Source: Candidatus Palauibacter scopulicola
GTDB lineage: Bacteria; Gemmatimonadota; Gemmatimonadetes; Palauibacterales; Palauibacteraceae
NCBI RefSeq assembly: GCF_947581915.1
Contig: NZ_CANPWG010000008.1
Location: forward strand, 62,001 to 126,000
Length of the DNA stretch: 64,000 nt
Reading direction: 5' to 3'
Position numbers and translations under genes: made by a program. The notes beneath the pieces were generated by a model. That model made no database searches. It had not been told where the DNA came from and saw only the letters and a program-made list of their open reading frames with translations. Position 1 is the first letter of the stretch. Each line of letters begins with the position of its first letter. This document shows positions 5,226 through 64,000 of this stretch, one piece after another.

Positions 5226-5287
5226 GAGAGTTCTCCCGGGATGGTCTGGTGGAGGGGCGAAATACCCTCCGGATCGCGTAAGTTCAA

Positions 5288-5362: not shown

Positions 5363-5430
5363 CGAATCGCCGCCAGCCGCGCAGACTTGTGACGGGTCCT
5401 CCGCGGGCCGGGTCCCCTGGTGTCGTGTCC

Positions 5431-5655
5431 CTAGCCGAGCTTGCGCCAGCCCAGGATCAGTCCGGCGGGCAGGAACACCGCATAGCCCAGGATGAGCAGG
5501 AGCGGCGCGGCCGTCACGGATCCACGGTCGAGCAGCACGTACCCAACGGCGATCGACGTGAGGCCGAGCGCGAACGCCGCGTAGTTGGCCAATCCGAACT
5601 GGAGGCCCCGGGCGGGAGCGTCCCCGCCCCGCCGGTCTCGTCTTCCCTGGTTCAT
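5431..5655 (-). CDS. Small two-helix membrane protein (DUF3098-like)
   Basis: A 74-aa protein with a basic, Gly/Arg-rich N-terminus (MNQGRRDRRGG) and two hydrophobic helices (about residues 24-42 and 47-66) ending WRKLG. Length and two-helix layout resemble the DUF3098 family of inner membrane proteins of unknown function, a tentative match. It sits between rluD and tRNA-Val. The start ATG is supported by the size and by the absence of other coding in the gap. Confidence 0.6.
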   Translation of the reverse strand: MNQGRRDRRGGDAPARGLQFGLANYAAFALGLTSIAVGYVLLDRGSVTAAPLLLILGYAVFLPAGLILGWRKLG

Positions 5656-5728
5656 GCGGGGACGCTAGACGTCCCTCCGACATGCGTCAACCGTTACGCG
5701 GGCGCGTCCGCGGCCCTCCGGGAGCACC

Positions 5729-6715: not shown

Positions 6716-6716
6716 G

Positions 6717-7310: not shown

Positions 7311-7680
7311 CGGTCTCTTCCTTTTCCTTGCACCGGATGCAAAGCCGCGCGTGCGGGAGGGCATCGAGCCGCTCGAAGCTGACCTCGTCGCCGCAGTGCT
7401 CACACCTTCCGAACTGCTCCGGGTTCCGGTAGAGCCGCCTCAGCGCCTCGTCGATGTGGTAGAGCAGCCGACCCTCCTTGCTCGCGAACAGGAACGCCTT
7501 CTCGCGCTCCATGGCGTCCGTCCCCTGGTCCGCCATATGGAAGCTGTACGCGGCCAGGTCGCTGTCCGCCCCCTGAAGGGAGCTCGTGAACTCTTCGTCG
7601 TACTGCCCCAGCTCCCGCGTCGCGCGCGCCCGGGCCTCGAGCAGCCTCTTCTCGATGTGTTTCCGTTGTTCCGCGTTCAT
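7303..7680 (-). CDS. DksA/TraR-family C4 zinc-finger protein
   Basis: This 125-aa protein has a helical first part (residues 1-80, coiled-coil-like) and a C-terminal four-cysteine zinc finger, CEHC at about 92-95 and CIRC at about 113-116, the DksA/TraR arrangement. Family members bind the RNA polymerase secondary channel and alter initiation, often with ppGpp. The classic DksA coiled-coil tip Asp pair is not obvious, so it may be a TraR/YteA-like relative. It is coupled to ileS (ATGA overlap) and to lspA (8-nt overlap). Confidence 0.85.
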   Translation of the reverse strand: MNAEQRKHIEKRLLEARARATRELGQYDEEFTSSLQGADSDLAAYSFHMADQGTDAMEREKAFLFASKEGRLLYHIDEALRRLYRNPEQFGRCEHCGDEVSFERLDALPHARLCIRCKEKEETGA

Positions 7681-10600
7681 CCTTCTCGGGCGCCTTCGCC
7701 GACGCCGCCGATTCCGATGAGGACCTCGACGTCGTCGATCTTCACCACAGCTTCATTCAGGCCTCCCCGCGGGGCCGACCCGGTTCGCACCTCCACTGCC
7801 AGCGTCTCGCCGGCAATGTAGTCCGCATGTGTCGACACGGCCCGTTCCAGCTCCCGCGGACCCGCCACGCCGAGGCGGATGCGGTCGGCGACCTCGAGCC
7901 CCGCGTCGCGCCGCAGCCGCTGCACGCGGTTCACGATCTCCCGCGCGTAACCTTCGGCGCGCAACGCATCATCGATATCGGTGTCCACGGCGGCGAGGTA
8001 ACCGCCCCCCGTCGCCACGGCGAGATCGGTGAGCGTCTCCTCCTGAATCACGAGGTCTTCGGGCGTCACCCGAACCCGTTCATCCCCGATCTCGATGTCG
8101 AGCGGTTCCCCGTCCCTGAGCGTTCTCAGGGCAGCAGCGTCCAGGTTCGCGATGCCGGCCGCGACCGCCGGCGTGCGCGCGCCGTGTTTCGGACCCAGGA
8201 CCCCGAACCGCGGCTTGGCGTACAGCCGGGTAAGATCTTCACTGTCCTCCAGCGACACAACCTTTTTTACGTTGAGTTCTTCCATCGCCAGTGCCGCCAT
8301 GGGGTCCGCAAGCGCCCGCCCCTCGGGCAGCACGGCGTGCAGCATGCGCAGCGGCTGCCGGATCCGGACCCCCGCCTTTTCCCGCGCGGCGCGGCCCAGG
8401 GCCACCAGCCGCCGCACGTCCTCCATTGCCTGTTCGAGTTCGGGCTCCGAACGTCCCGCCGGCTCCGGAAAGTCCGCCAGGTGGACGGATGTGTCGTCCG
8501 TGAGCGCCCGATACAGCCAATCGGACATGAACGGGGCGTACGGGGCGAGCAGCCGCGCGGTAGTGGCGAGACACTCGTGCAGCGTCGCGAACGCGTCGGC
8601 GCTCGCGGCCGCGGCCCCCGGCTGCGTCGCCCAGAAGCGGTCGCGGCTGCGGCGCACGTACCAGTTCGACACGTCGTCGAGCACGAACTCCTGGATGGCG
8701 CGCGCGCCGGCCGTGAGATCGAACGCGTCGAGCGCCCCTCCCACGATCCGCGCGACCCGGTCGAGGCGCGCGAGCACCCAGCGGTCGAGGTCGCTTCGGT
8801 CGGAGACCGGGGTCGGCGCGGAGGCGGTGTGGGACCACCCTTCCTCGTTCGCGTAGAGGGCGAAGAAGCGATACGTGTGGCGGAGCGTGGCGAACAGCTT
8901 GCGGTCGGTCTCGCGCAGCGCCGACGGGTCCCACCGCTTCGGCACCCACGGGTTGGACCCCGATAGGAAGTAGAAGCGCGTGACGTCGGCTCCGTAGCTG
9001 TCGAGGGCGTCGCGCGGGTCCACCGCGTTGCCGCGCGACTTCGACATCTTCCGCCCCTTGGCGTCGAGCACCTGGTCGTTGACGACGACGGCCCGGAACG
9101 GCGCGCGGTCGAAGAGGATGGTCGAGAGGGCGAGGAGGGAGTAGAACCAGCCGCGCGTCTGGTCCACGCCCTCCGCGATGTAGTCGGCCGGGAAGTAGCG
9201 CTCGAAGGTGTCGCGGTTCTCGAACGGATAGTGCCACTGGGCGTAGGGCATGGAGCCGGAGTCGAACCACGCGTCGGCGACCTCCGGCACGCGCCGCATC
9301 GTCCCGCCGCACGCGTCGACGCCGCACTTCCACTCGTATCCGTCGATCCCCGGCCGATGGGGATCGAAGTCCTCCGGGAGGCCGCCGGCGCGGCGCCCCA
9401 GCTCCGCGAAGGAGCCGAGCACCTCCCGTCGCCCGCAGTCCTCGGAGCAGAGCCAGATGGGGAGAGGGGTCCCCCAGTACCGCTCGCGTGAGAGCGCCCA
9501 GTCGATGTTGTTCTGCAGCCACTCGCCCATGCGGCCGGATCCCGTCTCGGGCGGATGCCAGTCGATGGACGCGTTGTGCTCGAGCAGGCGAGACTTCACC
9601 GCGGTCGTCCGGATATACCAGGAATCGCGCGCCATGTAGAGGAGCGCGCTGTCGCAGCGCCAGCAGTGCGGATAGCTGTGTTCGTACATCTCGCGCACGT
9701 ACAGCTGGTCGTGCGCGACGGTCCAGTCGCGGAGCGCGCGCTCGGTCTCCCGATCCTTGACGTGCATCCCGGCGAGTCCGCCCGGCACCGCGTCGAGGAA
9801 TCGTCCGTCCCCGCCGACCGTATGCTGCATCGGCAGCCCCGCGGCCTCGCCGAGCCGAAAGTCGTCCTCCCCGTACATCACCGCCGTGTGGACGACACCC
9901 GTCCCTTCGTCGACCGTGACGAAGTCCGCCTCGAGCACCGTCCACGCCGTGGTGGAGCCGGCCCGGTCCACCGCGCCCGGGAAGAGGGGCAGGTAGCTCC
10001 GCCCCGCGAGTTCGTCCCCGCGCATTTCCCCGACGATCTCATACGGGTGCCGCAGAACCTCGGAGACGCGGTCGCGGGCCAGGATGAGCACTTCACCGGG
10101 CGAGGCCCCGCCCGGCCCGTCGTGCGCCCGCGCGGGGGCCATGGCGCCGTCCGCGCCCTCGGGCAGGACGCGGACGCGGGCATACGGAATGTCGGGCCCG
10201 ACCGCGAGGCCGAGGTTGCCGGGAAGCGTCCACGGGGTCGTGGTCCAGCTCAGGATTCGCGCGTCGTCCGGGTCGTCCACGAGGTGGAACTTGATGTAGA
10301 CGGCCGGCTCGGTGACGTCCCGGTAACCCTGCGCCACCTCGTGGCTCGAGAGGCCCGTGCCGCAGCGCGGACACGTCGGTATGACGCGATATCCCCGGTA
10401 CAGCAGGCCCTGCTTCTCGATCTCCGAGAGCGCCCACCAGCCCGACTCGATGAACTCGGGCGAGTACGTGACGTAGGGTGCGCCGTAGTCCAGCCAGTAG
10501 CCGATGTCCCGGGACAACCGCTCCCAGGCGTCCTGGTAGCGGAACACGTTGTTCCGGCACACGTCGTTGAACTTCCGGATCCCGTAGCGCTCGATGTCCG

Positions 10601-10913
10601 GCTTGCCGGAAATGCCGAGCGTACGTTCGACTTCGAGTTCCACCGGCAGCCCGTGGGTATCCCAGCCCGCCTTCCGCGGCACGTGGTAACCGGACATGGT
10701 GCGGTACCGCGCCAGCGCGTCCTTGATCGTGCGGGCAAGGATGTGATGGACGCCGGGAGCGGCGTTCGCGGTCGGCGGCCCCTCGTAGAACACGAAATCG
10801 GGCGCAGCCGCCCGGGCCGCGAGGCTGCGCTCGAAGGTCTCCTCTTCCTCCCAGCGTGCGAGGACTTCGGTTTCGAGCCCGCGTACGGACTCCGGTATTG
10901 GCCGGTAGGCCAT
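7677..10913 (-). CDS. ileS: Isoleucyl-tRNA synthetase
   Basis: A class I aminoacyl-tRNA synthetase of 1078 aa. The HIGH-type motif is GVHHIL in the context PPTANAAPGVHH, the tRNA-synthetase context RKAGWDTHGLPVE follows, and KMSKSRGN is the second ATP-binding signature. Between them lies the large CP1 editing domain that hydrolyses Val-tRNA(Ile); two Cys pairs (CPRCG and CGVDACGG) suggest zinc sites. Length and motifs place it with the long, eukaryote-like IleRS2 forms, often less sensitive to mupirocin (family knowledge, not shown here). It overlaps the dksA-like gene by 4 nt. Confidence 0.97.
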   Translation of the reverse strand: MAYRPIPESVRGLETEVLARWEEEETFERSLAARAAAPDFVFYEGPPTANAAPGVHHILARTIKDALARYRTMSGYHVPRKAGWDTHGLPVELEVERTLGISGKPDIERYGIRKFNDVCRNNVFRYQDAWERLSRDIGYWLDYGAPYVTYSPEFIESGWWALSEIEKQGLLYRGYRVIPTCPRCGTGLSSHEVAQGYRDVTEPAVYIKFHLVDDPDDARILSWTTTPWTLPGNLGLAVGPDIPYARVRVLPEGADGAMAPARAHDGPGGASPGEVLILARDRVSEVLRHPYEIVGEMRGDELAGRSYLPLFPGAVDRAGSTTAWTVLEADFVTVDEGTGVVHTAVMYGEDDFRLGEAAGLPMQHTVGGDGRFLDAVPGGLAGMHVKDRETERALRDWTVAHDQLYVREMYEHSYPHCWRCDSALLYMARDSWYIRTTAVKSRLLEHNASIDWHPPETGSGRMGEWLQNNIDWALSRERYWGTPLPIWLCSEDCGRREVLGSFAELGRRAGGLPEDFDPHRPGIDGYEWKCGVDACGGTMRRVPEVADAWFDSGSMPYAQWHYPFENRDTFERYFPADYIAEGVDQTRGWFYSLLALSTILFDRAPFRAVVVNDQVLDAKGRKMSKSRGNAVDPRDALDSYGADVTRFYFLSGSNPWVPKRWDPSALRETDRKLFATLRHTYRFFALYANEEGWSHTASAPTPVSDRSDLDRWVLARLDRVARIVGGALDAFDLTAGARAIQEFVLDDVSNWYVRRSRDRFWATQPGAAAASADAFATLHECLATTARLLAPYAPFMSDWLYRALTDDTSVHLADFPEPAGRSEPELEQAMEDVRRLVALGRAAREKAGVRIRQPLRMLHAVLPEGRALADPMAALAMEELNVKKVVSLEDSEDLTRLYAKPRFGVLGPKHGARTPAVAAGIANLDAAALRTLRDGEPLDIEIGDERVRVTPEDLVIQEETLTDLAVATGGGYLAAVDTDIDDALRAEGYAREIVNRVQRLRRDAGLEVADRIRLGVAGPRELERAVSTHADYIAGETLAVEVRTGSAPRGGLNEAVVKIDDVEVLIGIGGVGEGAREG

Positions 10914-12467: not shown

Positions 12468-13127
12468 CTAGATCACCTGGAACGTCACCCACTGGGAGAC
12501 CCAGACCGCCGTGACCTTGTCACGGTTCTTCGCGGGCGTGAACCTCATCTGCTGCACGACCTTCCCCGCGGCCTCATCGAGCAGGCCGTTATTGGAAGAG
12601 GTCTTCACCTCGAAGTTCTCGACGGCTCCATCCTCGGTCACGTAGAGCCAGAGTTCGACGCGGCCGCCGATGCCGGCATCCTTCAGCGTGCGCGGATACT
12701 CCCGCTCCAGAATCTGCTGAATCTCACCCCCGTTCAGCATCACGGGCGGCGTATCGTACGCGATGAAGGACGGCCGGTCCGCCGGGCTCCCGGTCTCGGG
12801 AGGCGGGGGCAGCGCGTTGTCCGTCGTGAACGACTCGAACGTCGTTTCCGCGATCGTGATGTCCTCGGAGATGTCGACCGAAGCGACCCGCGGCGTGGCC
12901 GGACGGGCGATCTGCTCCGGCGGCGGCGGGATCTTCACCTCGGGCGGCAGCGCCACGGCTTCGATCTCCTCGGCCACGAACCCGAGATCCGCGGCCTCGA
13001 ACGGGCGCACGAGGACAAACAGCCCGAAGTGGAGCGTGACGGCAACCATGAGGCCGATCTGCGTCCAGTTGGTGCTCGCTCGCTTGAACTGATCGTTCGC
13101 GGTGAGCCGAATTCCGGTCTCTTCCAT
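12468..13127 (-). CDS. tonB: TonB-family energy transducer
   Basis: This 219-aa protein has a cytoplasmic lead, one transmembrane helix (about residues 24-40, IGLMVAVTLHFGLFVLV), a Pro-rich linker (PPEVKIPPPPEQ, LPPPPE) and a C-terminal TonB domain with YPRTLKDAGIGGRVELWLYV and MRFTPAK. It transmits proton-motive energy from ExbB/ExbD to outer membrane transporters. The open frame extends much further upstream, but the added residues are the frame-shifted exbD, and the ATG at 13127 has GGGAGAG six bases upstream. Last gene of the unit. Confidence 0.9.
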   Translation of the reverse strand: MEETGIRLTANDQFKRASTNWTQIGLMVAVTLHFGLFVLVRPFEAADLGFVAEEIEAVALPPEVKIPPPPEQIARPATPRVASVDISEDITIAETTFESFTTDNALPPPPETGSPADRPSFIAYDTPPVMLNGGEIQQILEREYPRTLKDAGIGGRVELWLYVTEDGAVENFEVKTSSNNGLLDEAAGKVVQQMRFTPAKNRDKVTAVWVSQWVTFQVI

Positions 13128-13165
13128 CGTTCTCTCCCGGTCTCCAGAAACCCGTCGTGTGTCTG

Positions 13166-13612
13166 CTAGCGCCGAGCCCGCATTGCGCGCTGCTCGAGTC
13201 GCGTGGCGAAGGTGACGCGGACCGCGCCGGACGCCTGCAGTTCTTCCGTGATCGTATTGATCTGCTGATAGGGCACCTCGGAGTCGCCGCGAATCGCGAC
13301 CACGAGTTCCCGGTTCTCCGCGTAGATGGGCCGAACCGTTTCCGAGATGTCCTCGAACGGCGTCAGCACGTCGTTGATCCAGACCGAACCGTCGCGCTGG
13401 ACCCAGAGATGGAGGATGTTCTGCCGCTTCTCGTCGATCTTCTCGGTGGCTTCGGCGGTCGTCCACTCGATCTGCCGGTTCCGGTCCTTCCGGAAGACGG
13501 TCGTCACCATGAAGAAGATGAGGAGGAGAAACGCGATGTCGGCCATGGATGAGGTGGGGATCGACCCGTCCGACCCGGACTTTTTCTTGAAGCCGCTGTC
13601 CTTGATGGCCAT
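13166..13612 (-). CDS. exbD: ExbD/TolR-family biopolymer transport protein (second copy)
   Basis: A 148-aa protein with one N-terminal transmembrane helix containing the proton-carrying Asp in MADIAFLLLIFFMVTT (about residue 25) and a periplasmic alpha/beta domain ending with a basic tail. It starts right after the first exbD (adjacent at 13612/13613). Compared with that copy it has the same IPTSSMADIAFLLL segment but a diverged periplasmic domain (QIEWTTAEATEKID), so the two may form heteromers or serve different partners. Confidence 0.92.
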   Translation of the reverse strand: MAIKDSGFKKKSGSDGSIPTSSMADIAFLLLIFFMVTTVFRKDRNRQIEWTTAEATEKIDEKRQNILHLWVQRDGSVWINDVLTPFEDISETVRPIYAENRELVVAIRGDSEVPYQQINTITEELQASGAVRVTFATRLEQRAMRARR

Positions 13613-14035
13613 CTAGTTCTCCATCTCCTGAAGCGAGATTCGCTCGGCGCCCGCCAGCTTCACCTCATCGAGCACGTTGACCATGTGACGGTAGGGCGCT
13701 TCGGGGTGGGTCTGAATGGCGGCGATGAGATTCTCGTTGCCCGCCAGTTCGGTGCGCAGGATGTTCGCCACCTGCGTGTGCGCCACGACCTGTTCCTGCT
13801 CGCTCTCGCCCCGGCGCACGATGACGCGGCCGTCCGGCTGCACGATGAAGAAGATCAGGTTCCTTCCCGAAACATCCTGCTCCTCGGCCTGCTCCGGGAG
13901 CACGATCGGGAGTCCCCGTTCCTCGTTGAACACCGTGGTCGTGAGGAAGAAGACCAGGAGGAGGAACGCGATGTCCGCCATCGAAGAGGTCGGGATCTCA
14001 TCCGACACCTTCTGCTTGCGCTTCATGATCGCCAT
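13613..14035 (-). CDS. exbD: ExbD/TolR-family biopolymer transport protein (first copy)
   Basis: This 140-aa protein shares with the downstream copy the transmembrane segment IPTSSMADIAFLLLVFFLTT with the functional Asp, then a periplasmic domain (GRNLIFFIVQPDGRVIVRRG, then NVLDEVKLAGAERISL). Part of the ExbB-ExbD proton channel that powers TonB. It lies 51 nt downstream of exbB. Confidence 0.93.
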   Translation of the reverse strand: MAIMKRKQKVSDEIPTSSMADIAFLLLVFFLTTTVFNEERGLPIVLPEQAEEQDVSGRNLIFFIVQPDGRVIVRRGESEQEQVVAHTQVANILRTELAGNENLIAAIQTHPEAPYRHMVNVLDEVKLAGAERISLQEMEN

Positions 14036-14086
14036 TGTGGACTTCTTTCTCCGTTTGCCTTCCGGGATACGATCCCGGCCCGCCGC

Positions 14087-14743
14087 CTAGGCGCGCCGGT
14101 CCTCGAGGTCCCAGATGAGCCCGAGCACCTCCTGCGCCCCCTCCTCCATGTCGAGGATGAGACGATCGATGCGGGTGACGAAAAAGTTGTAGCCGATGTT
14201 GACGGGGATCGCGATCGAGAGGCCGGTGGCGGTCGTGATGAGCGCCACCTTGATGCCGCCGGCGACGAGTCCCGGCTCCACCTGTCCGGCGATCTCGATG
14301 GCCTGGAAGGCGAGAATCATCCCGATCACGGTTCCGAGGAACCCCAGCATCGGGGCGACGTTGGCGATCGTACCCAGCACGGTCAGGCCGCGTTCGAGGA
14401 AATCGAGTTCGATCACGCCCGTCGTCGCGATCGCCTTCTGGATGTCCTTACCGTCGGAGCGCGCATCGCTGCCGCGGTCGCGGAGCCGGCGCAGACCGGC
14501 GAGGAGGATCGCCGCGACCGGCCCCCGCGTCTCTTCCGCCGTCGTAATCGCTTCACCGAGGCGGCCGCTGACTCCGAGGTTCTCGATCTCGTCAAGCAGC
14601 TTCCTGGAGTCGCGGTGGGCAATCCAGAGGGTCCACGCCTTGGCCAGCATCACGCCGATCGCGATCAGCGAGCAGAGGACAAGCGGGTACATCATGAACC
14701 CGCCATCGGTGAACAGCGTCAGCAGCTCGTACTGATTGCCCAT
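14087..14743 (-). CDS. exbB: ExbB/MotA/TolQ proton channel protein
   Basis: A 218-aa three-helix membrane protein: helix 1 near residues 15-35, then a large cytoplasmic loop, then helices 2 and 3 around residues 120-145 (VAPMLGFLGTVIGMI) and 160-190 (VALITTATGLSIAIPVNI). These are the conserved MotA/TolQ/ExbB segments that form the pentameric channel around ExbD. First gene of the exbB-exbD-exbD-tonB set; the 57 nt upstream of it, after cdaA, probably hold the promoter, but no convincing -35/-10 pair is visible. Confidence 0.93.
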   Translation of the reverse strand: MGNQYELLTLFTDGGFMMYPLVLCSLIAIGVMLAKAWTLWIAHRDSRKLLDEIENLGVSGRLGEAITTAEETRGPVAAILLAGLRRLRDRGSDARSDGKDIQKAIATTGVIELDFLERGLTVLGTIANVAPMLGFLGTVIGMILAFQAIEIAGQVEPGLVAGGIKVALITTATGLSIAIPVNIGYNFFVTRIDRLILDMEEGAQEVLGLIWDLEDRRA

Positions 14744-14800
14744 ATCGCCTGCCCGTGAGGGATTTGTCGCCCGGTCCCGGCCTGGTGTATCTTGAAAAGT

Positions 14801-15670
14801 TTAGGGGACGGACGGAGCCTCGTCAAACCGCTGGGGCCCGTCCGGCCGATCCGCCGACTCCACGTCCCGATCCGCGCCGGGGCGGCTCAGTTCGGGCGCC
14901 GGGACGTCCGCCGCCAGGTGGTCCCGGAGCTGCTGCGCCGCGAGGTTCCGGCGCAGGACACCGCGACGGGCGAGAGAAATCTGGCTCGTCTCCTCGGACA
15001 CGACCACGACGTAGGCGTCGGTCTCCTCCGAAAGGCCGAGCGTCGCCCGGTGCCGGGTCCCCAGCGTCCGGTCGCTGAGAGGATACTGCGTGAGCGGCAG
15101 GTGGACGCCGGCGGCCACGATCTGCCCGTCGCGCACAATGACCGCCCCATCGTGGAGGGGCGACTTCGGCGTGAACAGCGACACGAGCAGGCTGGACGAT
15201 ACGTCGGCCCGGAGGCGCGTCCCGGTCTTCTCGATGTACTCTTCGAGCGACAGTTCGCGTTCGAGCGCGATGATCGCCCCCGTCCGCGTGCGGGACAGTT
15301 CGGCCGCCGCCTTCGCGATCTCGTCCGCGACCGCCTCGCTACGCTCCTGAAGCCGGGTCAGCGCGCTCAGCACCCGGCTGCGGCCGATCCGGGCGAGCGC
15401 GTTCCGCAGCTCGGGGTGAAAGACGACGATGAGGGCGAAGGCGCCGTAGGTGAAGGCCTGCGAGAGGATCGACCGGATGAGGTCGAGGCTGAGCCATCCC
15501 GCCGCCGCGTACACCGCGACGAGAAGGACGAGGCCGAACAGCATCTGGAACGCACGGGTGCCCGACCAGAGGATGAGCACCCGGTAGATGAGGACCGCCA
15601 CGACGGTGATCTCGAAGACGTCCAGGAGGTCGATCTCGAGTAGGCCCACGTAGTTCCAGAGCGCGCCCAT
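14801..15670 (-). CDS. cdaA: Membrane-bound diadenylate cyclase (c-di-AMP synthase)
   Basis: This 289-aa protein has three N-terminal transmembrane helices (about residues 8-75) followed by a DAC catalytic domain. The signature DGAVIVRDG (DGA motif) and the GTRHRATLGLSE segment (RHR motif), both needed for ATP binding and cyclisation, are present. CdaA makes the second messenger c-di-AMP from two ATP, which usually controls potassium/osmotic balance and wall homeostasis. The family usually pairs with CdaR and GlmM, but folP and ftsH are the neighbours here and no cdaR is seen. The start overlaps the folP stop (TGATG). C-terminus is disordered and acidic. Confidence 0.94.
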   Translation of the reverse strand: MGALWNYVGLLEIDLLDVFEITVVAVLIYRVLILWSGTRAFQMLFGLVLLVAVYAAAGWLSLDLIRSILSQAFTYGAFALIVVFHPELRNALARIGRSRVLSALTRLQERSEAVADEIAKAAAELSRTRTGAIIALERELSLEEYIEKTGTRLRADVSSSLLVSLFTPKSPLHDGAVIVRDGQIVAAGVHLPLTQYPLSDRTLGTRHRATLGLSEETDAYVVVVSEETSQISLARRGVLRRNLAAQQLRDHLAADVPAPELSRPGADRDVESADRPDGPQRFDEAPSVP

Positions 15671-16587
15671 CAGCTGCCCCCTCCGGCCGCCCGCGGGCGG
15701 ACCAACGTGCGGGCGTCGCGAACGTCGCCACCGCGGCCGGCATCGATCGCGTGCTCGACGTCGAGGGCCTGACGCGTCTCACGGACGTCGTGCACCCGGA
15801 GCACATCGGCGCCGCGCCGCGCCGCGGCCAGACACGCGGCCACGGAGGCGGTGACGCGCTCGGCCGGCCCCAGATCGAGCAGCGCCCCGAGAAAGGACTT
15901 GCGCGACGGGCCGACCCACACGGGCGCCCCGAGCGACGCGATCTCGTCGAGCCGGGCCAGCAGTTCGAGATTGCCTTCCAGCGACTTGCCGAAGCCAAGC
16001 CCCGGGTCGACCGCGATCCGGTCCGGCTCGCAGCCCGCGTCCAGCGCCGTCCGCCGCGCGTTGGCGAGCGCGCCGCGGACCTCCGCCGCAACGTCGCCGT
16101 AGGCGGTGTCGAGCTGCATGGTGCGGGGCGTGCCGCGCATGTGCATGAGGACGAGTCCGACGCCCGTCCGGGCCGCGAGCCTCGCCAGCCCCGGATCGGC
16201 GCGCAGGGCCGTCACGTCGTTGATCGCCGCGGCGCCCGCGTCCACCGCCCGCTCCGCCACCTCGAGTTTGTGCGTGTCCACGGAGATGGGGATCGGGAGG
16301 TCGCGCAGGCCGCGGAGCACGGGTTCGAGCCGGGCCCATTCCTCGTCCGCCGGCACCGGATCGGCGCCGGGGCGGGTGGACTCGGCCCCGATATCGAGGA
16401 TCGCCGCTCCCTCTTCCGCGATCTCCCGGCCTCGCGCGATCGCCTTCCGAGGCTCCTCGAACCGGCCCCCATCCGAGAACGAATCGGGCGTGACGTTCAG
16501 GATTCCCGCGATCACGGGCGATTCAAGAGAGATCCCCCGATCGCCGGCCCGCCAGGCGCGCGCCGACCCCACCGCCGAGAGGCTCAT
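15670..16587 (-). CDS. folP: Dihydropteroate synthase
   Basis: This 305-aa TIM-barrel enzyme condenses 6-hydroxymethyl-dihydropterin diphosphate with p-aminobenzoate in folate synthesis; it is the sulfonamide target. Conserved motifs: GILNVTPDSFSDGGRF near the N-terminus, ESTRPGA, SVDTHK, INDV, MHMRGTP, DPGLGFGKS, GPSRKSFLG and RVHDV. The ATG start at 16587 adds a short lead before the first strand. It is 29 nt downstream of ftsH and overlaps cdaA by one base; ftsH-folP-cdaA form one run. Confidence 0.95.
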   Translation of the reverse strand: MSLSAVGSARAWRAGDRGISLESPVIAGILNVTPDSFSDGGRFEEPRKAIARGREIAEEGAAILDIGAESTRPGADPVPADEEWARLEPVLRGLRDLPIPISVDTHKLEVAERAVDAGAAAINDVTALRADPGLARLAARTGVGLVLMHMRGTPRTMQLDTAYGDVAAEVRGALANARRTALDAGCEPDRIAVDPGLGFGKSLEGNLELLARLDEIASLGAPVWVGPSRKSFLGALLDLGPAERVTASVAACLAAARRGADVLRVHDVRETRQALDVEHAIDAGRGGDVRDARTLVRPRAAGGGS

Positions 16588-16616
16588 CCCGCTCGCCCGG
16601 GTTCCGCCACGGACGG

Positions 16617-18617
16617 CTAGGCGGGGGCCGGGGCGGGTTCGCCCCCCGCACCCTCCAGCGGACGCTCGCGCTGCGGCGCCGGCTCCAGGGCCGCCGGCTG
16701 CGGCTGCGGCGGCGCGGGTTCCGGAGCCGGAGCCGGCAGCTCCCGGCCCTCCTCGAGCAGCTTGATGTCTTCCGCATCGAGCGTTTCGCGCTCCAGCAGC
16801 GCCTCCGCGATCGATTCGAGCAGCGCCTGATTCTCCTCGAGGACGGTGCCCGTGGCGGCGTACGACTCATCCAGGATGCGCTTGATCTCGCCGTCCACGA
16901 GTTCGGCCGTCTTCTCGCTGACCTCGCGGCGCTGGGAGAGATCCCGCCCCAGAAAGACTTCCTGTTCGCGGTCCCCCACGGACATCGCGCCCACGGCCGG
17001 GGACATCCCGAACTGCGTGACCATGCGGCGCGCGAGATCCGTCGCGCGCTCGATGTCGTTGCCCGCGCCGGTCGTGATCTTGCCGGCGCCGAACATCATC
17101 TCTTCGGCCACGCGCCCGCCGAAGAGCATCTTGAGCTGACCCTCGAGCCATTCCTTCGTGTAGTTGTGGCGGTCCTCCTCGGGGAGCGAAGCCGTGATCC
17201 CGAGGGCCCGCCCGCGCGGGACGATCGTCACCTTGTGGAGCGGATCCAGGCCCGGGACGCGGAGGGCGACGACGGCATGCCCCGCCTCGTGGTAGGCCGT
17301 GACGCGGCGCTCCTCCTCGGAGATCACCATGCTCCGGCGCTCGGTGCCTAGCATGACCTTGTCCTTGGCCCGCTCGAACTCCTCCATGTAGACGCGATCC
17401 TTGTCGTCCCGCGCCGCGATGAGCGCGGCCTCGTTCACGACGTTCTCGATATCCGCACCCGACAGTCCGGGGGTCCCCTTCGCGAGCACCGCGAGGTCGA
17501 CATCGTCGGCGAGCGGGATGTCCTGCGTGTGCACCTGGAAGATCCCCTCGCGTCCCTTGATATCGGGATTGTCGACCACGATCTGGCGGTCGAAGCGACC
17601 GGGGCGCAGGAGCGCGGGATCGAGCACATCCGGCCGGTTCGTCGCCGCGAGGAGGATCACTCCCTCGTTCGATTCGAACCCGTCCATCTCGACGAGCAAC
17701 TGGTTCAGGGTCTGTTCGCGCTCGTCGTGCCCCCCTCCGAGGCCGGCCCCCCGGTGGCGTCCCACCGCATCGATCTCGTCGATGAAGATGATGCAGGGGG
17801 CCTGGGCCTTCCCCTGTTCGAAGAGGTCGCGCACGCGGGAGGCGCCCACGCCGACGAACATCTCCACGAAGTCCGAGCCGGACATCGAGAAGAACGGCCG
17901 GCCGGCCTCCCCGGCGACAGCTCGCGCGAGAAGCGTTTTTCCGGTCCCCGGCGGGCCGACGAGCAGCGCGCCCTTCGGCAGGCGCCCGCCCAGCCGCGAG
18001 AACTTCCGCGGATCCTTGAGGAACTCGATGATCTCCTGCAGTTCGTCCTTCGCTTCATCGCAACCCGCGACATCCGCGAAGGTGATCTTCGGCGTGTCTC
18101 CGCTCAGGAGCCGGGCCTTCGACTTCCCGAAGCTGAACGCCCGCGACCCTCCGGCCTGCATCTGTCGGATGACGAAGAGCCAGAGCCCGATGATGAAGAT
18201 CCAGGGAAGGATCGAGATGAATACGTTGAGCCAGTTGCTGCGGGCGGGGAGCGTCTCGATCGTGATGTCGGCCTCGAGCAGTTCGCTCATGAGGGCATCG
18301 CCGATCTCCAGCGTCGGCAGCAGAAGATGGAAGTTCGCGATCTCCGCCTCGTCGACGGGGATCGCGCTCCGGAGCGTGCCTTCCACCTCGCCGGTGCCGA
18401 GGCGCACCTGGATCGACTCGATGTTCCGCTGCTCGATCTGCTCCCGGAACTGGGTGTAGCTCAGCGTCTCCCGGGCCTCCCTGGCGCCTCCCATGAACTG
18501 GAGGAGGGCGACCGGGATCAGAATCAACAGGGCCCAGAACGACGCCGTCCTGAGCCATCGGTGCATGCGCCCCGAGGGATCGCTGCCGTCCGGCTTCTGC
18601 GGCTGTTCTTGTCTCAT
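16617..18617 (-). CDS. ftsH: ATP-dependent zinc metalloprotease FtsH
   Basis: This 666-aa membrane protease has transmembrane helices at about residues 25-42 and 130-150 around a periplasmic domain. An AAA+ module follows with Walker A GPPGTGKT (221-228), Walker B (IIFIDEIDA), second region of homology (RPGRFDRQI), and then the M41 peptidase domain with zinc motif HEAGH. The last 60 residues are a Pro/Ala/Glu-rich tail. FtsH degrades misfolded membrane proteins and selected cytosolic regulators. Neighbour of hpt, as in many bacteria (tilS-hpt-ftsH order is conserved). Confidence 0.97.
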
Positions 18618-18678
18618 TTTGATCTATTCCGACCTGTTCAAGGTCCGATGTCTCGACTCCGGCCGCCTCGCGTACGGC

Positions 18679-19242
18679 TCACGTACGAAGAGACGCGATA
18701 AACGGAAGGTGACGATAATCCTCCGCCTGATCCAATCCATACCCCACAAGGAACTCATTTGGTGCATCGAAGCCAACCCACCGCGGCTCCCACCCGAGGT
18801 CCGGCGCGATGTGCTTGTGGAGGAGCGCGCAGATCTCCAGCGAAGCGGGACGTCGCTCGGCGATCCCGCCGCACAACTGGTTCAGCGTGGTGCCGCTGTC
18901 GACGATGTCCTCGACGATGATGATGTGCCGGCCGGTCATCGGGGCTCGCGGGTCGTAGAGCAGTTCCACGTGGCCCGAACTCTTCGTGCCCCTGCCGTAG
19001 CTGGACGCGACGAGGAAGTCGACCTGCAGCGGACGCCGGATCTGGCGGACCAGGTCGCCGAGGAACACGAACGATCCCTTCAGCAGTCCGAGCAGCAGGA
19101 TGTCGGCGTCCGGCGGGTAGGCGGCGGCGATCTCCGCTCCCATGCCGGCGACGCGGGCCGCGATGTCCGACGCGGAGTAGACGATGCGTCCGAGGGGCTC
19201 GCCCCCCGTGTACTCCGTGAACTCACGTTCCGCGGCTGTCAT
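18679..19242 (-). CDS. hpt: Hypoxanthine phosphoribosyltransferase
   Basis: A type I phosphoribosyltransferase of 187 aa. The PRPP loop is VEDIVDSGTTL and the purine/pyrophosphate loop is LLGLLKGSFVFLGDL; a flexible loop carries SSYGRGTKSSG. It salvages hypoxanthine and/or guanine to IMP/GMP using PRPP. I chose the start at 19242 (MTAAEREF), overlapping tilS by 20 nt; an in-frame start at 19272 would add ten poorly conserved residues. The tilS-hpt-ftsH order is conserved in many phyla. Confidence 0.92.
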   Translation of the reverse strand: MTAAEREFTEYTGGEPLGRIVYSASDIAARVAGMGAEIAAAYPPDADILLLGLLKGSFVFLGDLVRQIRRPLQVDFLVASSYGRGTKSSGHVELLYDPRAPMTGRHIIIVEDIVDSGTTLNQLCGGIAERRPASLEICALLHKHIAPDLGWEPRWVGFDAPNEFLVGYGLDQAEDYRHLPFIASLRT

Positions 19243-20659
19243 GGTGCCGGTGTCGGCGCTCTGTGAATCCAATGGCGAACCACGCTCCTCCGGGGTGGGC
19301 CGGCTCCACCGCCGTCCGGGAGTGCCCGGCCACCCACAGCACTCTCCGGTCGGCGTCCGCGACGACCGGCACGCCTGAACGATCCGAGGCCGGCACGCGG
19401 CGCTCCATCAGGAGCTTCGCGACTTTCCGCGACCCGGCCCGCGTGCGGATCCGGTCTCCGGGCTGCGGCCCCCGTACCCGGATCGGGAACCGGATCCCGT
19501 CGACGGGGAGCGCGGTGGCCCACCGCTCGGTGCCCTCCAGCGCGCCCCAGCGCACCTCGTAGTCGCGTCCGCCGAGGCGGACCGGCTCCCGTCCCGCCCG
19601 CACCCCGTCGATATCGAACTCGCGGTCGGGCGGCGCCTCGCGCACGCGCCGTACATGAATCCGGTCGAACTCCCGCTCGACCCGCAGACCCGCCGCGATG
19701 TCCACTCCGTGCCCGCTCTTCGCCGTGTCGATGAAGGATGCGCCCGCGCGGGTTCCGCGCCGGGACAGCAGAAAACCCATGTCCCGGGCGACCCGCCGCA
19801 ACATGCGCCCGCGAGCCGCCCGATCATACCCCAGCAACAGGGACCGGGCAATTTGCGCCCCGCCGGCGCTTTTCCCGTATCCCGCGCTGGAGAGGAGCCG
19901 CCGGACGCCCGCTTCCAGCCCCCCCTCGGCCACGGCGGCATTCCGTCCGAGTTCCGTCAGCTGGCGGCGGATGGACGGCTCGTGGCCGGCCAGCGCCGGG
20001 AGCAGCCCGTACCGCACCCGAGCGCGCCGGTAACGAGGATTCCGGTTCGCGGGATCCCTCGCCCACTCGCGTCCCGAGGCCCGCAGATAGCCTCTCAGTT
20101 CCTCGCGCGCGAAGCCGAGCAGCGGACGCACGAAGGCGCCGCGGCGGGCGGGGATGCCGGCCAGTCCGCGAAAGCCGGGGCCGCGCAGGAGGTTGAGCAA
20201 CACCGTCTCCACGTGGTCATCGCGCTGGTGTGCGAGGGCGACGCGATCCGCTCCGGCCCGACGCCGGGCCTCGGCAAGAAACGCGTATCTGGCCGCCCGC
20301 CACTCGGCCGGGCCGCCCGTGAGTCCGGTCGCCCGGCCCACGTCGCACGGCACTTCGATCCGGCGGCAGAGGTCCGCGGCCCTCGCGGCCCATGCGGCGC
20401 TCTCCGGCTGGAGTCCGTGGTCGAAGTGGGCCGCGCACAGCTTCAAGGGCCAGGACTCGCCCAGCGCGCGGAGGAGGTGCAGGAGCGCCAGCGAGTCCGA
20501 TCCGCCGGAGAAGGCCACGACGACGCACGAACCTCGCGGCAGAAGCTCCGGAGCCGCCTGGAGCGCGGCCCTCAGGCGCGTTTCCACGCCGGCGCCCGCG
20601 ACCGGCGGGGCGGCGGCGCCGGGTGTCAGGACTCTCCTTGCGGGGGGCGGTCGCGCCAC
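19223..20659 (-). CDS. tilS: tRNA(Ile)-lysidine synthase
   Basis: This 478-aa N-type ATP pyrophosphatase has the PP-loop VVAFSGGSDSLALLHLL (about residues 46-62). It converts the wobble C34 of tRNA(Ile)(CAU) to lysidine so the tRNA reads AUA and is charged with Ile. The middle contains HQRDDHVETVLLNLLRG and RPLLGFAREEL, both typical of TilS, and the C-terminal part fits the substrate-binding domains (RKVAKLLMERRVP). The N-terminal 25 residues are Pro/Ala-rich; a later start is possible. Confidence 0.93.
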   Translation of the reverse strand: MARPPPARRVLTPGAAAPPVAGAGVETRLRAALQAAPELLPRGSCVVVAFSGGSDSLALLHLLRALGESWPLKLCAAHFDHGLQPESAAWAARAADLCRRIEVPCDVGRATGLTGGPAEWRAARYAFLAEARRRAGADRVALAHQRDDHVETVLLNLLRGPGFRGLAGIPARRGAFVRPLLGFAREELRGYLRASGREWARDPANRNPRYRRARVRYGLLPALAGHEPSIRRQLTELGRNAAVAEGGLEAGVRRLLSSAGYGKSAGGAQIARSLLLGYDRAARGRMLRRVARDMGFLLSRRGTRAGASFIDTAKSGHGVDIAAGLRVEREFDRIHVRRVREAPPDREFDIDGVRAGREPVRLGGRDYEVRWGALEGTERWATALPVDGIRFPIRVRGPQPGDRIRTRAGSRKVAKLLMERRVPASDRSGVPVVADADRRVLWVAGHSRTAVEPAHPGGAWFAIGFTERRHRHHDSRGT

Positions 20660-60816: not shown

Positions 60817-61506
60817 CTATTCCTCCTTCGCGTCGGCGGGCTCTTCCGCCTCAGCGTCGTCCGTCGGCGCCTCCGCTTCGGCTTCGGTTTCGGCGTCGGC
60901 GTCGGCGTCGGCTTCGGAGGGAGCCTCGTCGGCCTCGTCGGCCGCTTCTTCGGCGCCGTCCGTCTCCCCGGCCTCTTCGCTTTCCTCCGCCTCCCCGGTC
61001 TCCTCCGCTTCCCCGGTCTCCTCCGCCTCGGAGGCCCCGTCGGTCTCGGACCCTTCCTCGGCGTCGGGGGCATCTGCGGCGGCTTCCTCCACCTCGGGTT
61101 CCCCGGCTTCGGCTTCCTCTGCCTTGGCTTCCTCTGCCTTGGCTTCCTCCGCGGGTTCTTCTGCCTTGGCTTCCTCTGCGGCGGGCGTCTCCGGCGCCGG
61201 GTCGGGAAGCGGCAGCGGATGTTCCGCGATCACGATCAGGTACCGAAGGACGTCATCCTCGAGCTTCAGCAAGCGCTCCAGCTCCCTGAGCGGATCGGGC
61301 GCCGAAGTGAACTGGGCGACGACGTAGTAGCCGTTCGGCTGCTTCTTGATGGGGTAGGCGAGTTGACGCTTGCCCCAGTGGACCGAGGCGGTGATTTCGC
61401 CCGAACCGTCGGCCGTGATTGCGGCGTGGTAGCGTTCGAGTTTCGCCTCGATCTCCTCGGAGGTCAGGCTCGAACGGAAGATGTACACGATCTCGTAATC
61501 GCGCAT
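60817..61506 (-). CDS. rpsF: 30S ribosomal protein S6 with very long acidic tail
   Basis: The first 95 or so residues are S6: MRDYEIVYIFRSSLTSEEIE, WGKRQLAYPIKKQPNGYYVV, LEDDVLRYLIVI. Length is 229 aa; usual S6 is 95-140. The extra tail of about 125 residues is almost wholly Glu, Ala, Asp, Gly and Thr with repeated EEAKAEE and EETGEAEE units. It opens the rpsF-rpsR-DUF2232-rplI-rsfS run. No ssb lies between rpsF and rpsR, unlike in many bacteria. Confidence 0.96.
   Translation of the reverse strand: MRDYEIVYIFRSSLTSEEIEAKLERYHAAITADGSGEITASVHWGKRQLAYPIKKQPNGYYVVAQFTSAPDPLRELERLLKLEDDVLRYLIVIAEHPLPLPDPAPETPAAEEAKAEEPAEEAKAEEAKAEEAEAGEPEVEEAAADAPDAEEGSETDGASEAEETGEAEETGEAEESEEAGETDGAEEAADEADEAPSEADADADAETEAEAEAPTDDAEAEEPADAKEE
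60835..61200. repeat. Low-complexity tandem-like repeats encoding the S6 acidic tail
   Basis: Within rpsF, GC-rich short units such as CTTGGCTTCCTCTGC (encoding AEEAK-type units) recur several times around 61105-61185, and CCGGTCTCCTCCGC-type units (EETGEAEE) near 60985-61030. They could vary in number between strains. Confidence 0.6.
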
Positions 61507-61738
61507 GCGCAGGCTCCTTCGGTCTCGTCGGCCCCGATCCGCGCGGTCGGAGCAGGAGTCTCTTGTTGATGTGCCGATGTCCGGTCAACTCGACATCGGG
61601 TTGAAGAAGGTGAAGAAGGTATCGCCGGCGGTTTGTACGTCAAGCTCCGAGGATTGAACGCCAGGACGGAGACGGTGTGATCTTCCGCCGGTGGTGGCCA
61701 CGTTCGCTCGGCGGGAGGTTGGGCGATCGAAGGCGACG
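61507..61738. promoter_or_regulatory. 232-nt gap upstream of rpsF holding its probable promoter
   Basis: This gap lies between rpsF and the accessory genes and is the boundary between high-GC core and lower-GC DNA. On the minus strand TTGACC at 61583-61588 could be a -35 box for the rpsF operon; a matching -10 is not convincing. A tandem GAAGAAGGT x2 (about 61602-61620) is also present. No RNA gene, IS end or att-type repeat is visible. Confidence 0.3.
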
Positions 61739-62617
61739 CTATTGGGGCGGCTGCGCGAGTTGCCTTATCGTCTCCATCAGCAATCTCGCTCTTGCCAAAC
61801 GGAATTTCGAATACCGAACGTGCGTTTTTCCTGTCACGCTTATCATTTCCTCGTATGGGACAAGATGCCCCTCGATCCGTTCCCGCAACTCCCCTTCTGT
61901 GATTCCCTTCTTCCTCGTGACGTTCGCCACGTACTCGTGCGGCGGGTACTTCCAGAACTGCCGGTTTGTGCGCCTGTCCAGCACCACGCCGTTTAGGCCG
62001 TTGTTTATCTCTCTCTCCGGGACACCCGCTTCGAGCAGCACTTTCTTTGGAAACACGTGATGTCGATCCAAGTTCCTCTCCTGCTCAAGTTGCCGGATAT
62101 GGGTCGCCCGCAGAAACTCGCCCGTGATCCAATCGACAGGTGTCGTCTTGGACGCCAGAACCCCTGCAACCAAGGCCTTCCCGATCCGGCTTTTTCCGAT
62201 CCATCCCACGCTCTCTGCCAACCATTCCGAGGGATAGAGCGGATGATGTTGATCGCTAAAGATCCGCATAGTCCCTACCTCCCTCTCGCCTTTGAGTACG
62301 CTCGAGAGCTCCTCCAGATCCTCGTGTAGACGGTCGTTCGCCTGCCGTTCGTGTCGGTTCGTGAATAGAGAGCGCCAATAATATGCATCGATCAGCTGTC
62401 GCGCGGCGTTGACTTTCGCGGGATCGTCGTCACGTAACGAGCGCGATCCGACAGCGGTGAGGACGTGCACTGGCGGCCAGCTTGGGAGCGTGGATCGACT
62501 CGGCGAGCCCATGTTCGAAACACGCATCAGGGCCCACTCGACATCTCTCAGTACCTCCTCGAAGTTCCCGGGCACCCCACCGTTTTCGTCACTTTCCGTC
62601 TCAAATAGGTATTCCAC
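61739..62617 (-). CDS. HNH (DUF1524-like) protein resembling the C-terminal half of GmrSD-type nucleases
   Basis: A 292-aa protein. Residues 70-115 (QLIDAYYWRSLFTNRHERQA, DRLHEDLEELSSVLKG) match the helical region seen in DUF262-DUF1524 proteins. The last part has an HNH-like motif: NLDRHHVFPKKVLLEAG, INNGLNGVVLDRRTNRQFW. The N-terminal DUF262 domain (ParB-like, DGQQR motif) is absent; the protein starts where it would end. GTG at 62617 overlaps the upstream gene by 17 nt, with AGAGGGAG just before it. GmrSD-type enzymes restrict modified phage DNA (family knowledge). GC is lower than in the rest of the window. Confidence 0.75.
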   Translation of the reverse strand: MEYLFETESDENGGVPGNFEEVLRDVEWALMRVSNMGSPSRSTLPSWPPVHVLTAVGSRSLRDDDPAKVNAARQLIDAYYWRSLFTNRHERQANDRLHEDLEELSSVLKGEREVGTMRIFSDQHHPLYPSEWLAESVGWIGKSRIGKALVAGVLASKTTPVDWITGEFLRATHIRQLEQERNLDRHHVFPKKVLLEAGVPEREINNGLNGVVLDRRTNRQFWKYPPHEYVANVTRKKGITEGELRERIEGHLVPYEEMISVTGKTHVRYSKFRLARARLLMETIRQLAQPPQ

Positions 62618-63245
62618 TCCCTCTGAGGTTGATGGCGGTCACCGCTCGCAGCTGCCGCGCGATATCGACGTCTCCTTGTGCTACTTCCTGCACCAACCAC
62701 GCTCTCCACCACGCACGTCCGAAGGGGCAGTCGACGTAGACGGTACGTTTGCCACGGGCTTCCGGGATGCCGCCCAGGCGGCGAAGAACTGTACGCAAGC
62801 AGTCGTCGATTGCCTTTTCGCGCGTAGCGCCACTAGACCTCAGAGCCATCTCGATGCGTGCCGCCCCGCTTGGCACGGATGGTGACGTGGCGAGATACGA
62901 TGCGTCGATGCGCCCCTCGAGAATGTGTCGGCGGGTCACATTGGCCCAGAAGGTCGTTCGTGACGCGATGCGGCAACCGATCGACTGCCACAACTCGTAC
63001 AGGCGGGTTTCGGTGTCAGATGGTGGATTGCCGAACTCGTTCTCTGTCATCGGCACTTCGCTCAAATCGACTTCAGATTGTCCTACGGTGCCGATCTCAC
63101 GGTCAAGATAGGCCACGAAATCGACGCTGGATTTCGCCGCTTCGAGGAACTCGACCTGTCGTGGGCTCCCCTTCTTGGTCAGGAGCGAGCGGCGGAACTT
63201 CGTGTAGTCTGAATCTGAGAGTTCGCGGTATGTGCGATCCGTCAT
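62601..63245 (-). CDS. Unknown protein of a putative defence-type module
   Basis: A 214-aa soluble protein starting MTDRTYRELSDSDYTKFRRS. No known domain is recognised. Notable: acidic and helix-rich N-terminal part, central SRTTFWANVTRRHILEGRID, and a Trp-rich segment PFGRAWWRAWLVQEVA near the end. It overlaps the next gene by 17 nt and its start overlaps the stop of the upstream gene by 4 nt (63242-63245), so the three genes form one translation-coupled unit. Confidence 0.6.
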   Translation of the reverse strand: MTDRTYRELSDSDYTKFRRSLLTKKGSPRQVEFLEAAKSSVDFVAYLDREIGTVGQSEVDLSEVPMTENEFGNPPSDTETRLYELWQSIGCRIASRTTFWANVTRRHILEGRIDASYLATSPSVPSGAARIEMALRSSGATREKAIDDCLRTVLRRLGGIPEARGKRTVYVDCPFGRAWWRAWLVQEVAQGDVDIARQLRAVTAINLRGSGIPI

Positions 63246-64000
63246 CGATCTCCGTCCGGGTCAGGGAGCACATGCGGATACAGCACGGTGGCCGCTTCTT
63301 CCGGATGGAAGTCCTCTTCGTCCCATCCGTAGGGGTACTTTCCGGCGAGATGATCCGCGAGGCGGGACAAGTTCCGATCCCACTCCTCGGGATCGCGAAA
63401 CTGCCTCTGCAGCACGGCGAGACACGCTGTAACTACATGTGTCATGATGTTGCTGCGGGTCTCGCTTCGGGGAGCGCTTCGGAAGTAGCGGATCAGTTCC
63501 GGACCACACTTGACGACGAAGCGGAACGGGTCGCTACCTGTATCCACCAGAAACGTGCTTCCGCTCAGGGTCTCGTCCGGCTGTATTGTGATGAGCTGAG
63601 TCACGGACGAGCGTAGGTCGAAGACATGTCCCACGGCGAGCCGTGCGCCACGAGGAATCTCAACGCGGATACCGTGCCAAGCTGGGTGGACTTCGTCACG
63701 GGCAGAGTCGAGGTCAACGGCGACCGCATCGGTACAGAGGATCACCGGCGTGAACAGCGGCGGCTCGCCGAGATCCCGATCACTCCACCTCACGCGCTGG
63801 CTGGGCGAGCGCTGCAGAAGCGTTCGGCGGTAAAACGACTTGGGGGAAGACACGATGCATGCGTATTCCGCCTTCTTCTGGCGGATCAGCCGCTTGATCA
63901 GGCTGGCTCGCTCGACCCGGTGCTCAAGTCTGAGTTCCTCACTGCCGACTCCATCTTCCGGGAAGGCGACAACATACCGACCGTTAGGGAACGAAAGATT
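63242..64000 (-). CDS. Unknown protein, N-terminus off the right edge
   Basis: The frame is open from the stop at 63242 to the right end of the window; the GTG at 63853 lies inside it and the frame continues upstream as NGRYVVAFPEDGVGSEELRL and ASLIKRLIRQKKAEYACIV directly before SSPKSFYRR. So at least 250 residues are visible and the start is outside. Beta-rich middle (FDLRSSVTQLITIQPDETL, FRFVVKCGPELIRYFRS) and a His/Asp/Glu-rich end. No family recognised. It is the upstream member of the three-gene unit. Confidence 0.6.
   Translation of the reverse strand, partial: NLSFPNGRYVVAFPEDGVGSEELRLEHRVERASLIKRLIRQKKAEYACIVSSPKSFYRRTLLQRSPSQRVRWSDRDLGEPPLFTPVILCTDAVAVDLDSARDEVHPAWHGIRVEIPRGARLAVGHVFDLRSSVTQLITIQPDETLSGSTFLVDTGSDPFRFVVKCGPELIRYFRSAPRSETRSNIMTHVVTACLAVLQRQFRDPEEWDRNLSRLADHLAGKYPYGWDEEDFHPEEAATVLYPHVLPDPDGDR

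What the first reader, a model, noticed from the sequence alone, without database searches (positions are those of the whole stretch)
61739..64000. Lower-GC, translation-coupled three-gene module with a half-GmrSD nuclease at the right edge
Three minus-strand genes overlap each other (4 and 17 nt). The downstream one keeps the helical region and HNH end of DUF262-DUF1524 (GmrSD-type) proteins but not the DUF262 half, while the two upstream genes match no family I know. Two 60-base lines I counted here are 45% and 52% GC, against a clearly higher GC elsewhere. Overlap plus a nuclease-like end and foreign composition suggest a multi-gene restriction or anti-phage system, continuing beyond the window, in which the missing DUF262 role is taken by other subunits.
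Basis: partly seen in the sequence, partly recalled or inferred. Interest (0 to 1): 0.65.

Follow-up and report, generated by a model that had tools for sequence, protein, structure and literature searches.

The report
Broken copy of sulphur-tagging defence operon
The three overlapping genes at the window's edge are the tail of a six-gene, horizontally acquired operon that looks like an undescribed kind of anti-virus system combining DNA sulphur-tagging enzymes with an unusual ATPase trio; the odd "half nuclease" that drew attention is most likely just the stump left by a deletion in this one genome.

Summary
In detail: three minus-strand ORFs overlap by 4 and 17 nt, GC is about 60% against about 70%, and the last ORF is a DUF1524/HNH-type end without DUF262. 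Read beyond the window, the locus is a ~7.2 kb island between rpsF and hppA, absent at that site in 11 of 11 same-genus genomes. It holds six genes: PAPS-reductase-like (frame-broken), IscS/SspA-like cysteine desulfurase, GHKL ATPase (PADLOC PDC-M33A), PDC-M33B, DUF6339/PDC-M33C, and the HNH fragment. The first five form a co-inherited operon in dozens of metagenome-assembled genomes from many phyla. Relatives carry phosphorothioate (PT)-linked partners: full-length DUF262-HNH (SspE-like), PT-DNA-binding HNH endonuclease, dnd_rel_methyl. Elsewhere the same trio sits beside methylation-based restriction systems. The claim that other subunits replace DUF262 is not: relatives have the full DUF262-HNH protein, and one ~1.3 kb deletion explains both the missing DUF262 half and the missing end of the neighbouring gene. 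Most likely this is a damaged copy of an unnamed PT-type modification/defence system built on a GHKL ATPase trio, whose exact job (sulphur writer or restriction machine) is unresolved.

The parts
61562..64000 (.). Part of a ~7.2 kb strain-specific island lying in the window; it continues to window-equivalent ~68770 (G000:C8:123562-130770), between rpsF and hppA
   Evidence: 11/11 same-genus genomes have sequence up to L002 3561 joined almost directly to the hppA 3' end; GC drop
61739..62617 (-). P0007, 292 aa: C-terminal (helical + DUF1524/HNH) fragment of a DUF262-DUF1524 (GmrSD/SspE-like) protein; DUF262 half missing
   Evidence: Aligns over residues 1-292 with residues 308-598 of the 599-aa L032 protein; own HMM covers only positions 296-559 of 565 here
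61838..62170 (-). HNH/DUF1524-like region with DRHHVFPK ... N motif (approximate limits)
   Evidence: H493, H494, N516 and N525 of the L032 protein are invariant in alignment A5
62601..63245 (-). P0006, 214 aa: truncated PDC-M33C/DUF6339 protein; relatives are ~285-300 aa
   Evidence: Residues 7-206 align with 13-213 of a 299-aa relative, then homology stops; DUF6339 match in the relative L031 lies at residues 173-286
62601..62630 (.). Inferred deletion junction: ~1.3 kb (end of M33C gene + spacer + DUF262 half) missing
   Evidence: Homology of P0006 ends and homology of P0007 begins here; the two genes are intact and adjacent in L032
63242..64000 (-). P0005 (window part), 278 aa in full: PDC-M33B, predicted beta-rich protein with C-terminal helices; 4-nt overlaps with both neighbours
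   Evidence: PADLOC PDC-M33B 5e-7; family alignment A4 and model. Further genes upstream, outside the window: GHKL ATPase PDC-M33A (equiv. 64075-66030), cysteine desulfurase (~66097-67242), PAPS-reductase-like gene with a frame break (~67298-68550)

Best explanation
The feature is the 3' end of a damaged copy of a mobile six-gene defence operon. Proposed working of the intact system: the cysteine desulfurase takes sulphur from cysteine and the PAPS-reductase-like ATP-pyrophosphatase activates and passes it on (by homology to DndA/SspA and DndC/SspD). The GHKL ATPase with PDC-M33B and PDC-M33C forms an ATP-driven DNA-engaging machine. It works with the sulphur enzymes to place or police a phosphorothioate-type mark, and swappable effectors (DUF262-HNH or PT-DNA-binding HNH nucleases) cut DNA according to that mark. 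In this genome a ~1.3 kb deletion has cut off the DUF6339 end of PDC-M33C and the whole DUF262 sensing/GTPase half of the effector, and the PAPS-reductase gene is out of frame, so this copy is probably non-functional. Shown here: gene content, homology, conservation, co-inheritance, empty site, truncation pattern. Inferred: the sulphur mark itself, the division of labour, loss of function.
For: Operon content and families. 58 loci from many phyla with the same genes; PAPS-reductase within the locus in 55 of 59 (three of the other four run off a contig), desulfurase in 28. Trees of the five proteins agree (Mantel r 0.83-0.955, p 0.001). PT-linked neighbours: dnd_rel_methyl 1.5e-186, PT-DNA_restrict above cut-off in L032 and L060, dnd_restrict_1 2e-95 and DndD-like 1e-25 (both below their curated cut-offs) in a mainly gammaproteobacterial subset, DUF262-HNH proteins in 16 other loci. 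16 of 24 genomes tested, including this one, have neither DndE nor DUF4007/SspB. Truncation pattern; no other DUF262 domain in the genome; empty sites.
Against: No DNA or activity data: phosphorothioation is inferred from homology and gene company. The PAPS-reductase match is weak (Pfam below cut-off; SspD 3.8e-6). The same trio occurs without sulphur genes beside methyltransferase-based restriction systems, so its basic role need not be in sulphur writing. The deletion and the frame break could be errors of a draft assembly. Not every relative has a recognisable effector.
Confidence: 0.62

Rival explanations
1. The GHKL-M33B-M33C trio is a self-contained restriction/anti-phage machine of the paraMORC kind that merely rides with whatever modification enzymes are at hand (5mC or N6 methyltransferases, or sulphur enzymes) and takes no part in making the mark.
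For: Trio beside type II restriction-modification genes, Vsr, HsdS/N-6 methylase, Shedu or AIPR on plasmids of Lactococcus, Ligilactobacillus, Priestia, Deinococcus, Planococcus, Arthrobacter, Paenarthrobacter and Enterococcus; L084 has a DNA methylase in place of PAPS-reductase; GHKL proteins of restriction operons were proposed to loop DNA between sites (PMC2292703).
Against: In most sulphur-type genomes tested no DndE or SspB homolog exists, so something in the operon must replace the known sulphur-writing partners; sulphur genes and trio are almost invariably together and co-inherited.
Confidence: 0.4
2. The stand-alone HNH half is a functional, deliberately split nuclease whose DUF262 role is taken by the upstream subunits.
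For: ORF intact, HNH residues kept, overlaps its neighbour by 17 nt.
Against: Relatives have both halves; the missing stretches in two adjacent genes are contiguous; no DUF262 elsewhere in the genome.
Confidence: 0.06
3. Deletion and frame break are assembly artefacts; the real strain has an intact operon.
For: 79-contig draft genome; other draft genomes show frame breaks in the same genes (L033, L034, L051, L057).
Against: A clean 1.3 kb loss inside a contig is less typical of assembly error than a 1-nt indel; no reads were available.
Confidence: 0.2
4. The sulphur enzymes modify something other than DNA (for example tRNA or a small molecule).
For: PAPS-reductase/ATP-pyrophosphatase and cysteine desulfurase families also serve tRNA thiolation (established knowledge).
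Against: PT-DNA-binding endonuclease, dnd_rel_methyl and DUF262-HNH genes in the same loci.
Confidence: 0.1

Closest known systems
Ssp system (SspABCD-SspE)
   Same: Cysteine desulfurase and PAPS-reductase-like protein; relatives carry a DUF262-HNH effector with the DGQQR motif, as SspE does
   Different: No SspB/DUF4007; GHKL ATPase plus PDC-M33B/C instead; here the effector lacks its DUF262 half
Dnd system (DndABCDE) and its accessory genes
   Same: DndA-like desulfurase; relatives carry dnd_rel_methyl, dnd_restrict_1-like and PT-DNA-binding HNH genes
   Different: No DndD or DndE in this genome; PAPS-reductase only distantly similar; GHKL trio absent from the published survey as far as its main text could be searched (PMC10853773)
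PADLOC candidate PDC-M33
   Same: A and B detected here; C detected in relatives
   Different: PADLOC lists a candidate with no published mechanism found; link to sulphur enzymes and PT effectors not found described
MORC/paraMORC GHKL ATPases of restriction-modification operons (PMC2292703)
   Same: N-terminal GHKL ATPase, patchy lateral spread, company of restriction genes
   Different: Company of PAPS-reductase and desulfurase; family assignment to a particular paraMORC class not tested
Type 4 BREX
   Same: Methylation enzyme replaced by PAPS-reductase, desulfurase often present (PMC12839542)
   Different: No PglZ, BrxC, BrxL or DUF4007 in the island

Membership tests
GmrSD/SspE-type (DUF262-DUF1524) nuclease | N-terminal DUF262 domain with DGQQR motif | tested here: not met
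   Absent from P0007 and its upstream frame; no GmrSD_N in the genome
GmrSD/SspE-type (DUF262-DUF1524) nuclease | C-terminal HNH/DUF1524 motif | tested here: met
   HH and N residues conserved with full-length relatives; no Pfam hit by itself
GmrSD/SspE-type (DUF262-DUF1524) nuclease | PT-stimulated GTPase and nicking activity | not testable with these tools
   Needs biochemistry
Dnd phosphorothioation system | DndD and DndE present | tested here: not met
   No TIGR03185 or PF08870 match in this genome
Dnd phosphorothioation system | DndC-type PAPS reductase | tested here: inconclusive
   PAPS_reduct E 0.002, below cut-off; SspD 3.8e-6, BrxP 1.2e-5; frame-broken here
Ssp phosphorothioation system | SspA-type cysteine desulfurase | tested here: met
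   SspA 1e-133, DndA 4e-133, but also generic IscS
Ssp phosphorothioation system | SspB (DUF4007) | tested here: not met
   No PF13182 match in this genome
Ssp phosphorothioation system | SspC ATPase | not tested
   No model accession was at hand
PADLOC PDC-M33 | PDC-M33A (GHKL ATPase) | tested here: met
   3.6e-30; GHKL motifs invariant
PADLOC PDC-M33 | PDC-M33B | tested here: met
   5e-7
PADLOC PDC-M33 | PDC-M33C | tested here: inconclusive
   Truncated protein here gives no hit; 9 and 3 of 31 family members match the two models
Type 4 BREX | PglZ/BrxC/BrxL core | tested here: not met
   None among the six island proteins; rest of genome not searched
paraMORC GHKL ATPase | GHKL plus S5 domain | tested here: inconclusive
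   GHKL motifs present; S5 domain not tested

The most novel reading that the evidence does not exclude
A third, independently assembled DNA phosphorothioation writer: a MORC/MutL-like GHKL ATPase with PDC-M33B and DUF6339 proteins replaces the SMC-like DndD-DndE or the SspB-SspC pair as the DNA-engaging engine that lets a PAPS-reductase put sulphur into the DNA backbone.
Probability: 0.35. Interest if true: 0.8.

Novelty: new variant of a known kind. Interest (0 to 1): 0.58.

Why it matters
The known DNA phosphorothioation machines (Dnd, and the Ssp/BREX-4 type) use P-loop ATPases. A widespread operon pairing the sulphur enzymes with a GHKL ATPase trio, and that trio pairing elsewhere with ordinary methyltransferases, would show that the DNA mark and the ATP machine are interchangeable modules, and gives a concrete, testable function to the unnamed PDC-M33/DUF6339 families. 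The half nuclease itself is a caution: a striking gene architecture in one draft genome turned out to be a probable deletion scar.

Tried and rejected
A stand-alone half-GmrSD as a real split effector was rejected after comparing 16 other loci. A DUF262 partner elsewhere in the genome: none. Pfam, NCBIfam and PDB searches with P0007 gave nothing useful. Fold searches: the DUF6339/PDC-M33C model (pLDDT 92, all helical) has no PDB match with E below 1.6, and the PDC-M33B model (pLDDT 87) only weak fibronectin-III-like matches with E 0.02 or more, so no fold-based function is claimed. Phage records: no homolog of the GHKL protein. Rfam scan of the island: none. Repeats in the island: nothing convincing. 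Papers: none found on PDC-M33 or DUF6339, and none on a GHKL-phosphorothioation link. Programmed frameshift in the PAPS-reductase gene was considered because L033 breaks at the same place; most relatives are unbroken and L033's break is at a G6 run, so chance or sequencing error is likelier.

Full report
What is there. The window is G000:C8:62001-126000. The three ORFs are real, minus-strand, and overlap by 4 and 17 nt. GC is 0.60-0.61 against ~0.70 for the rest of the window. Reading on past the window edge (L002 = G000:C8:120001-139000, window position = L002 position + 58000) shows six genes in one direction: a PAPS-reductase-like gene in two frames (P0001/P0002), a cysteine desulfurase (P0003), a 651-aa GHKL ATPase (P0004), the 278-aa P0005, the 214-aa P0006 and the 292-aa P0007. 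The hppA gene lies next to them at L002 10771.

Island. In 11 of 11 other genomes of the genus the sequence up to about L002 3561, just upstream of the rpsF start, is joined within about 145-240 nt to the 3' end of hppA. The island therefore occupies L002 ~3562-10770, and this genome is the only one of the 12 that has it. No GHKL homolog was found in the 15 other same-genus genomes listed in the phylum search.

Families. P0003 is IscS/DndA/SspA-like (SspA 1e-133). P0001 has weak PAPS_reduct (0.002), SspD (3.8e-6) and BrxP (1.2e-5) matches. P0004 matches PADLOC PDC-M33A (3.6e-30) and, weakly, GHKL models; the GHKL motif residues are invariant in alignment A1. P0005 matches PDC-M33B (5e-7). P0006 and P0007 match nothing by themselves. 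Full-length relatives of P0006 match PDC-M33C and Pfam DUF6339. Full-length relatives of P0007 match Pfam GmrSD_N above cut-off and carry the DGQQR motif.

Conservation. A genome-contig scan with the GHKL family found 58 loci in metagenome-assembled genomes of Acidobacteriota, Alpha- and Gammaproteobacteria, Acidimicrobiia, Gemmatimonadota, Chloroflexi, Dadabacteria, Verrucomicrobiae, Nitrospinota and others. With this genome's locus added, the PAPS-reductase lies in the locus in 55 of 59, PDC-M33B in 55, PDC-M33C in 53 and the desulfurase in 28; three of the four loci without PAPS-reductase run off the contig. Distances in the protein trees correlate strongly (Mantel r 0.83-0.955, p 0.001). 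Our GHKL protein branches near Acidobacteriota and Gammaproteobacteria sequences, not with those of its own class, consistent with lateral transfer.

The half nuclease. In L032 the same order continues into an intact 299-aa PDC-M33C gene, a 140-nt spacer and an intact 599-aa DUF262-HNH gene. Our P0006 aligns to L032 residues 13-213 and stops. P0007 aligns, from its first residue to its last, to residues 308-598. The missing stretch is thus contiguous: about 86 codons + 140 nt + 307 codons, or ~1.3 kb. In 15 of the 16 other loci with this type of gene both ends are present, whole or in frame-broken pieces (L039, L056, L073); the exception, L046, shows only the DUF262 end. No GmrSD_N domain exists elsewhere in this 95.9%-complete genome. 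In SspE the DUF262 part senses the PT mark and hydrolyses GTP to license the HNH part (PMC13251355); a copy without it should not be regulable in that way. The PAPS-reductase gene here also changes frame near L002 9765. A draft-assembly artefact cannot be excluded for either defect.

What the intact system probably does. The sulphur enzymes plus the company of PT-specific genes point to DNA phosphorothioation: dnd_rel_methyl (1.5e-186; 621 bits, cut-off 150); PT-DNA_restrict (312 and 313 bits, cut-off 180) directly upstream of the GHKL gene in L060 and directly after the DUF262-HNH gene in L032; and, in a mainly gammaproteobacterial subset, a sigma-region-4-like protein, a dnd_restrict_1-like helicase and a DndD-like ATPase, the last two below their curated cut-offs. 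Of 24 host genomes tested, 16 have neither DndE nor DUF4007/SspB, so in those the known sulphur-writing partners are missing and the GHKL trio is the natural candidate to stand in; several of these genomes are drafts, so some absences may be gaps. Against a simple 'writer' role, the same trio occurs on plasmids of Bacillota, Actinomycetota and Deinococcota beside type II or N-6 methylase restriction genes and no sulphur genes, and in L084 beside an N6/N4 methylase. This recalls the GHKL (MORC/paraMORC) proteins of restriction operons, which were proposed to loop DNA between recognition and cleavage sites (PMC2292703). My commitment: PT-type modification/defence operon, about 0.85; trio needed for writing the mark, about 0.35-0.4; this copy broken, about 0.8. 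These figures are judgements, not computed values.

Novelty. Published surveys of Dnd/PT systems and of BREX that could be searched here mention no GHKL, Hsp90 or DUF6339 partner of PAPS-reductase, and no paper in the library names PDC-M33 or DUF6339. The library holds only openly licensed papers, so absence there is not proof. I file it as a new variant of a known kind (modification-based restriction, PT branch).

Noticed in passing
window 60817-61506 (-): Ribosomal protein S6 gene just outside the island encodes a 229-aa protein with a long Glu/Ala-rich acidic C-terminal tail.
   Followed up: no
L033-L035, L037, L038, L040, L051, ~12700-19900: In Gammaproteobacteria the core operon continues into a composite block: dnd_rel_methyl (some), sigma-region-4-like protein, dnd_restrict_1-like helicase and a DndD-like ATPase.
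   Followed up: partly
L054 1033-8956: Two divergently oriented GHKL-M33B-M33C trios back to back on one contig, only one next to PAPS-reductase and desulfurase.
   Followed up: no
L100-L102, L105-L107 (plasmids), ~6600-7980, upstream of the GHKL gene: Methylation-linked versions of the trio often have a small ~60-80 aa gene directly upstream of the GHKL gene; Shedu or AIPR genes occur nearby in Arthrobacter, Paenarthrobacter and Enterococcus plasmids.
   Followed up: partly
one search hits, L029-L086: The hits are all uncultured MAGs, many with bin names I recall from marine sponge microbiome studies; the ecological concentration was not verified.
   Followed up: no
L033 7250-7480: Another PAPS-reductase gene is frame-broken at the same position as ours, at a run of six G.
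   Followed up: partly
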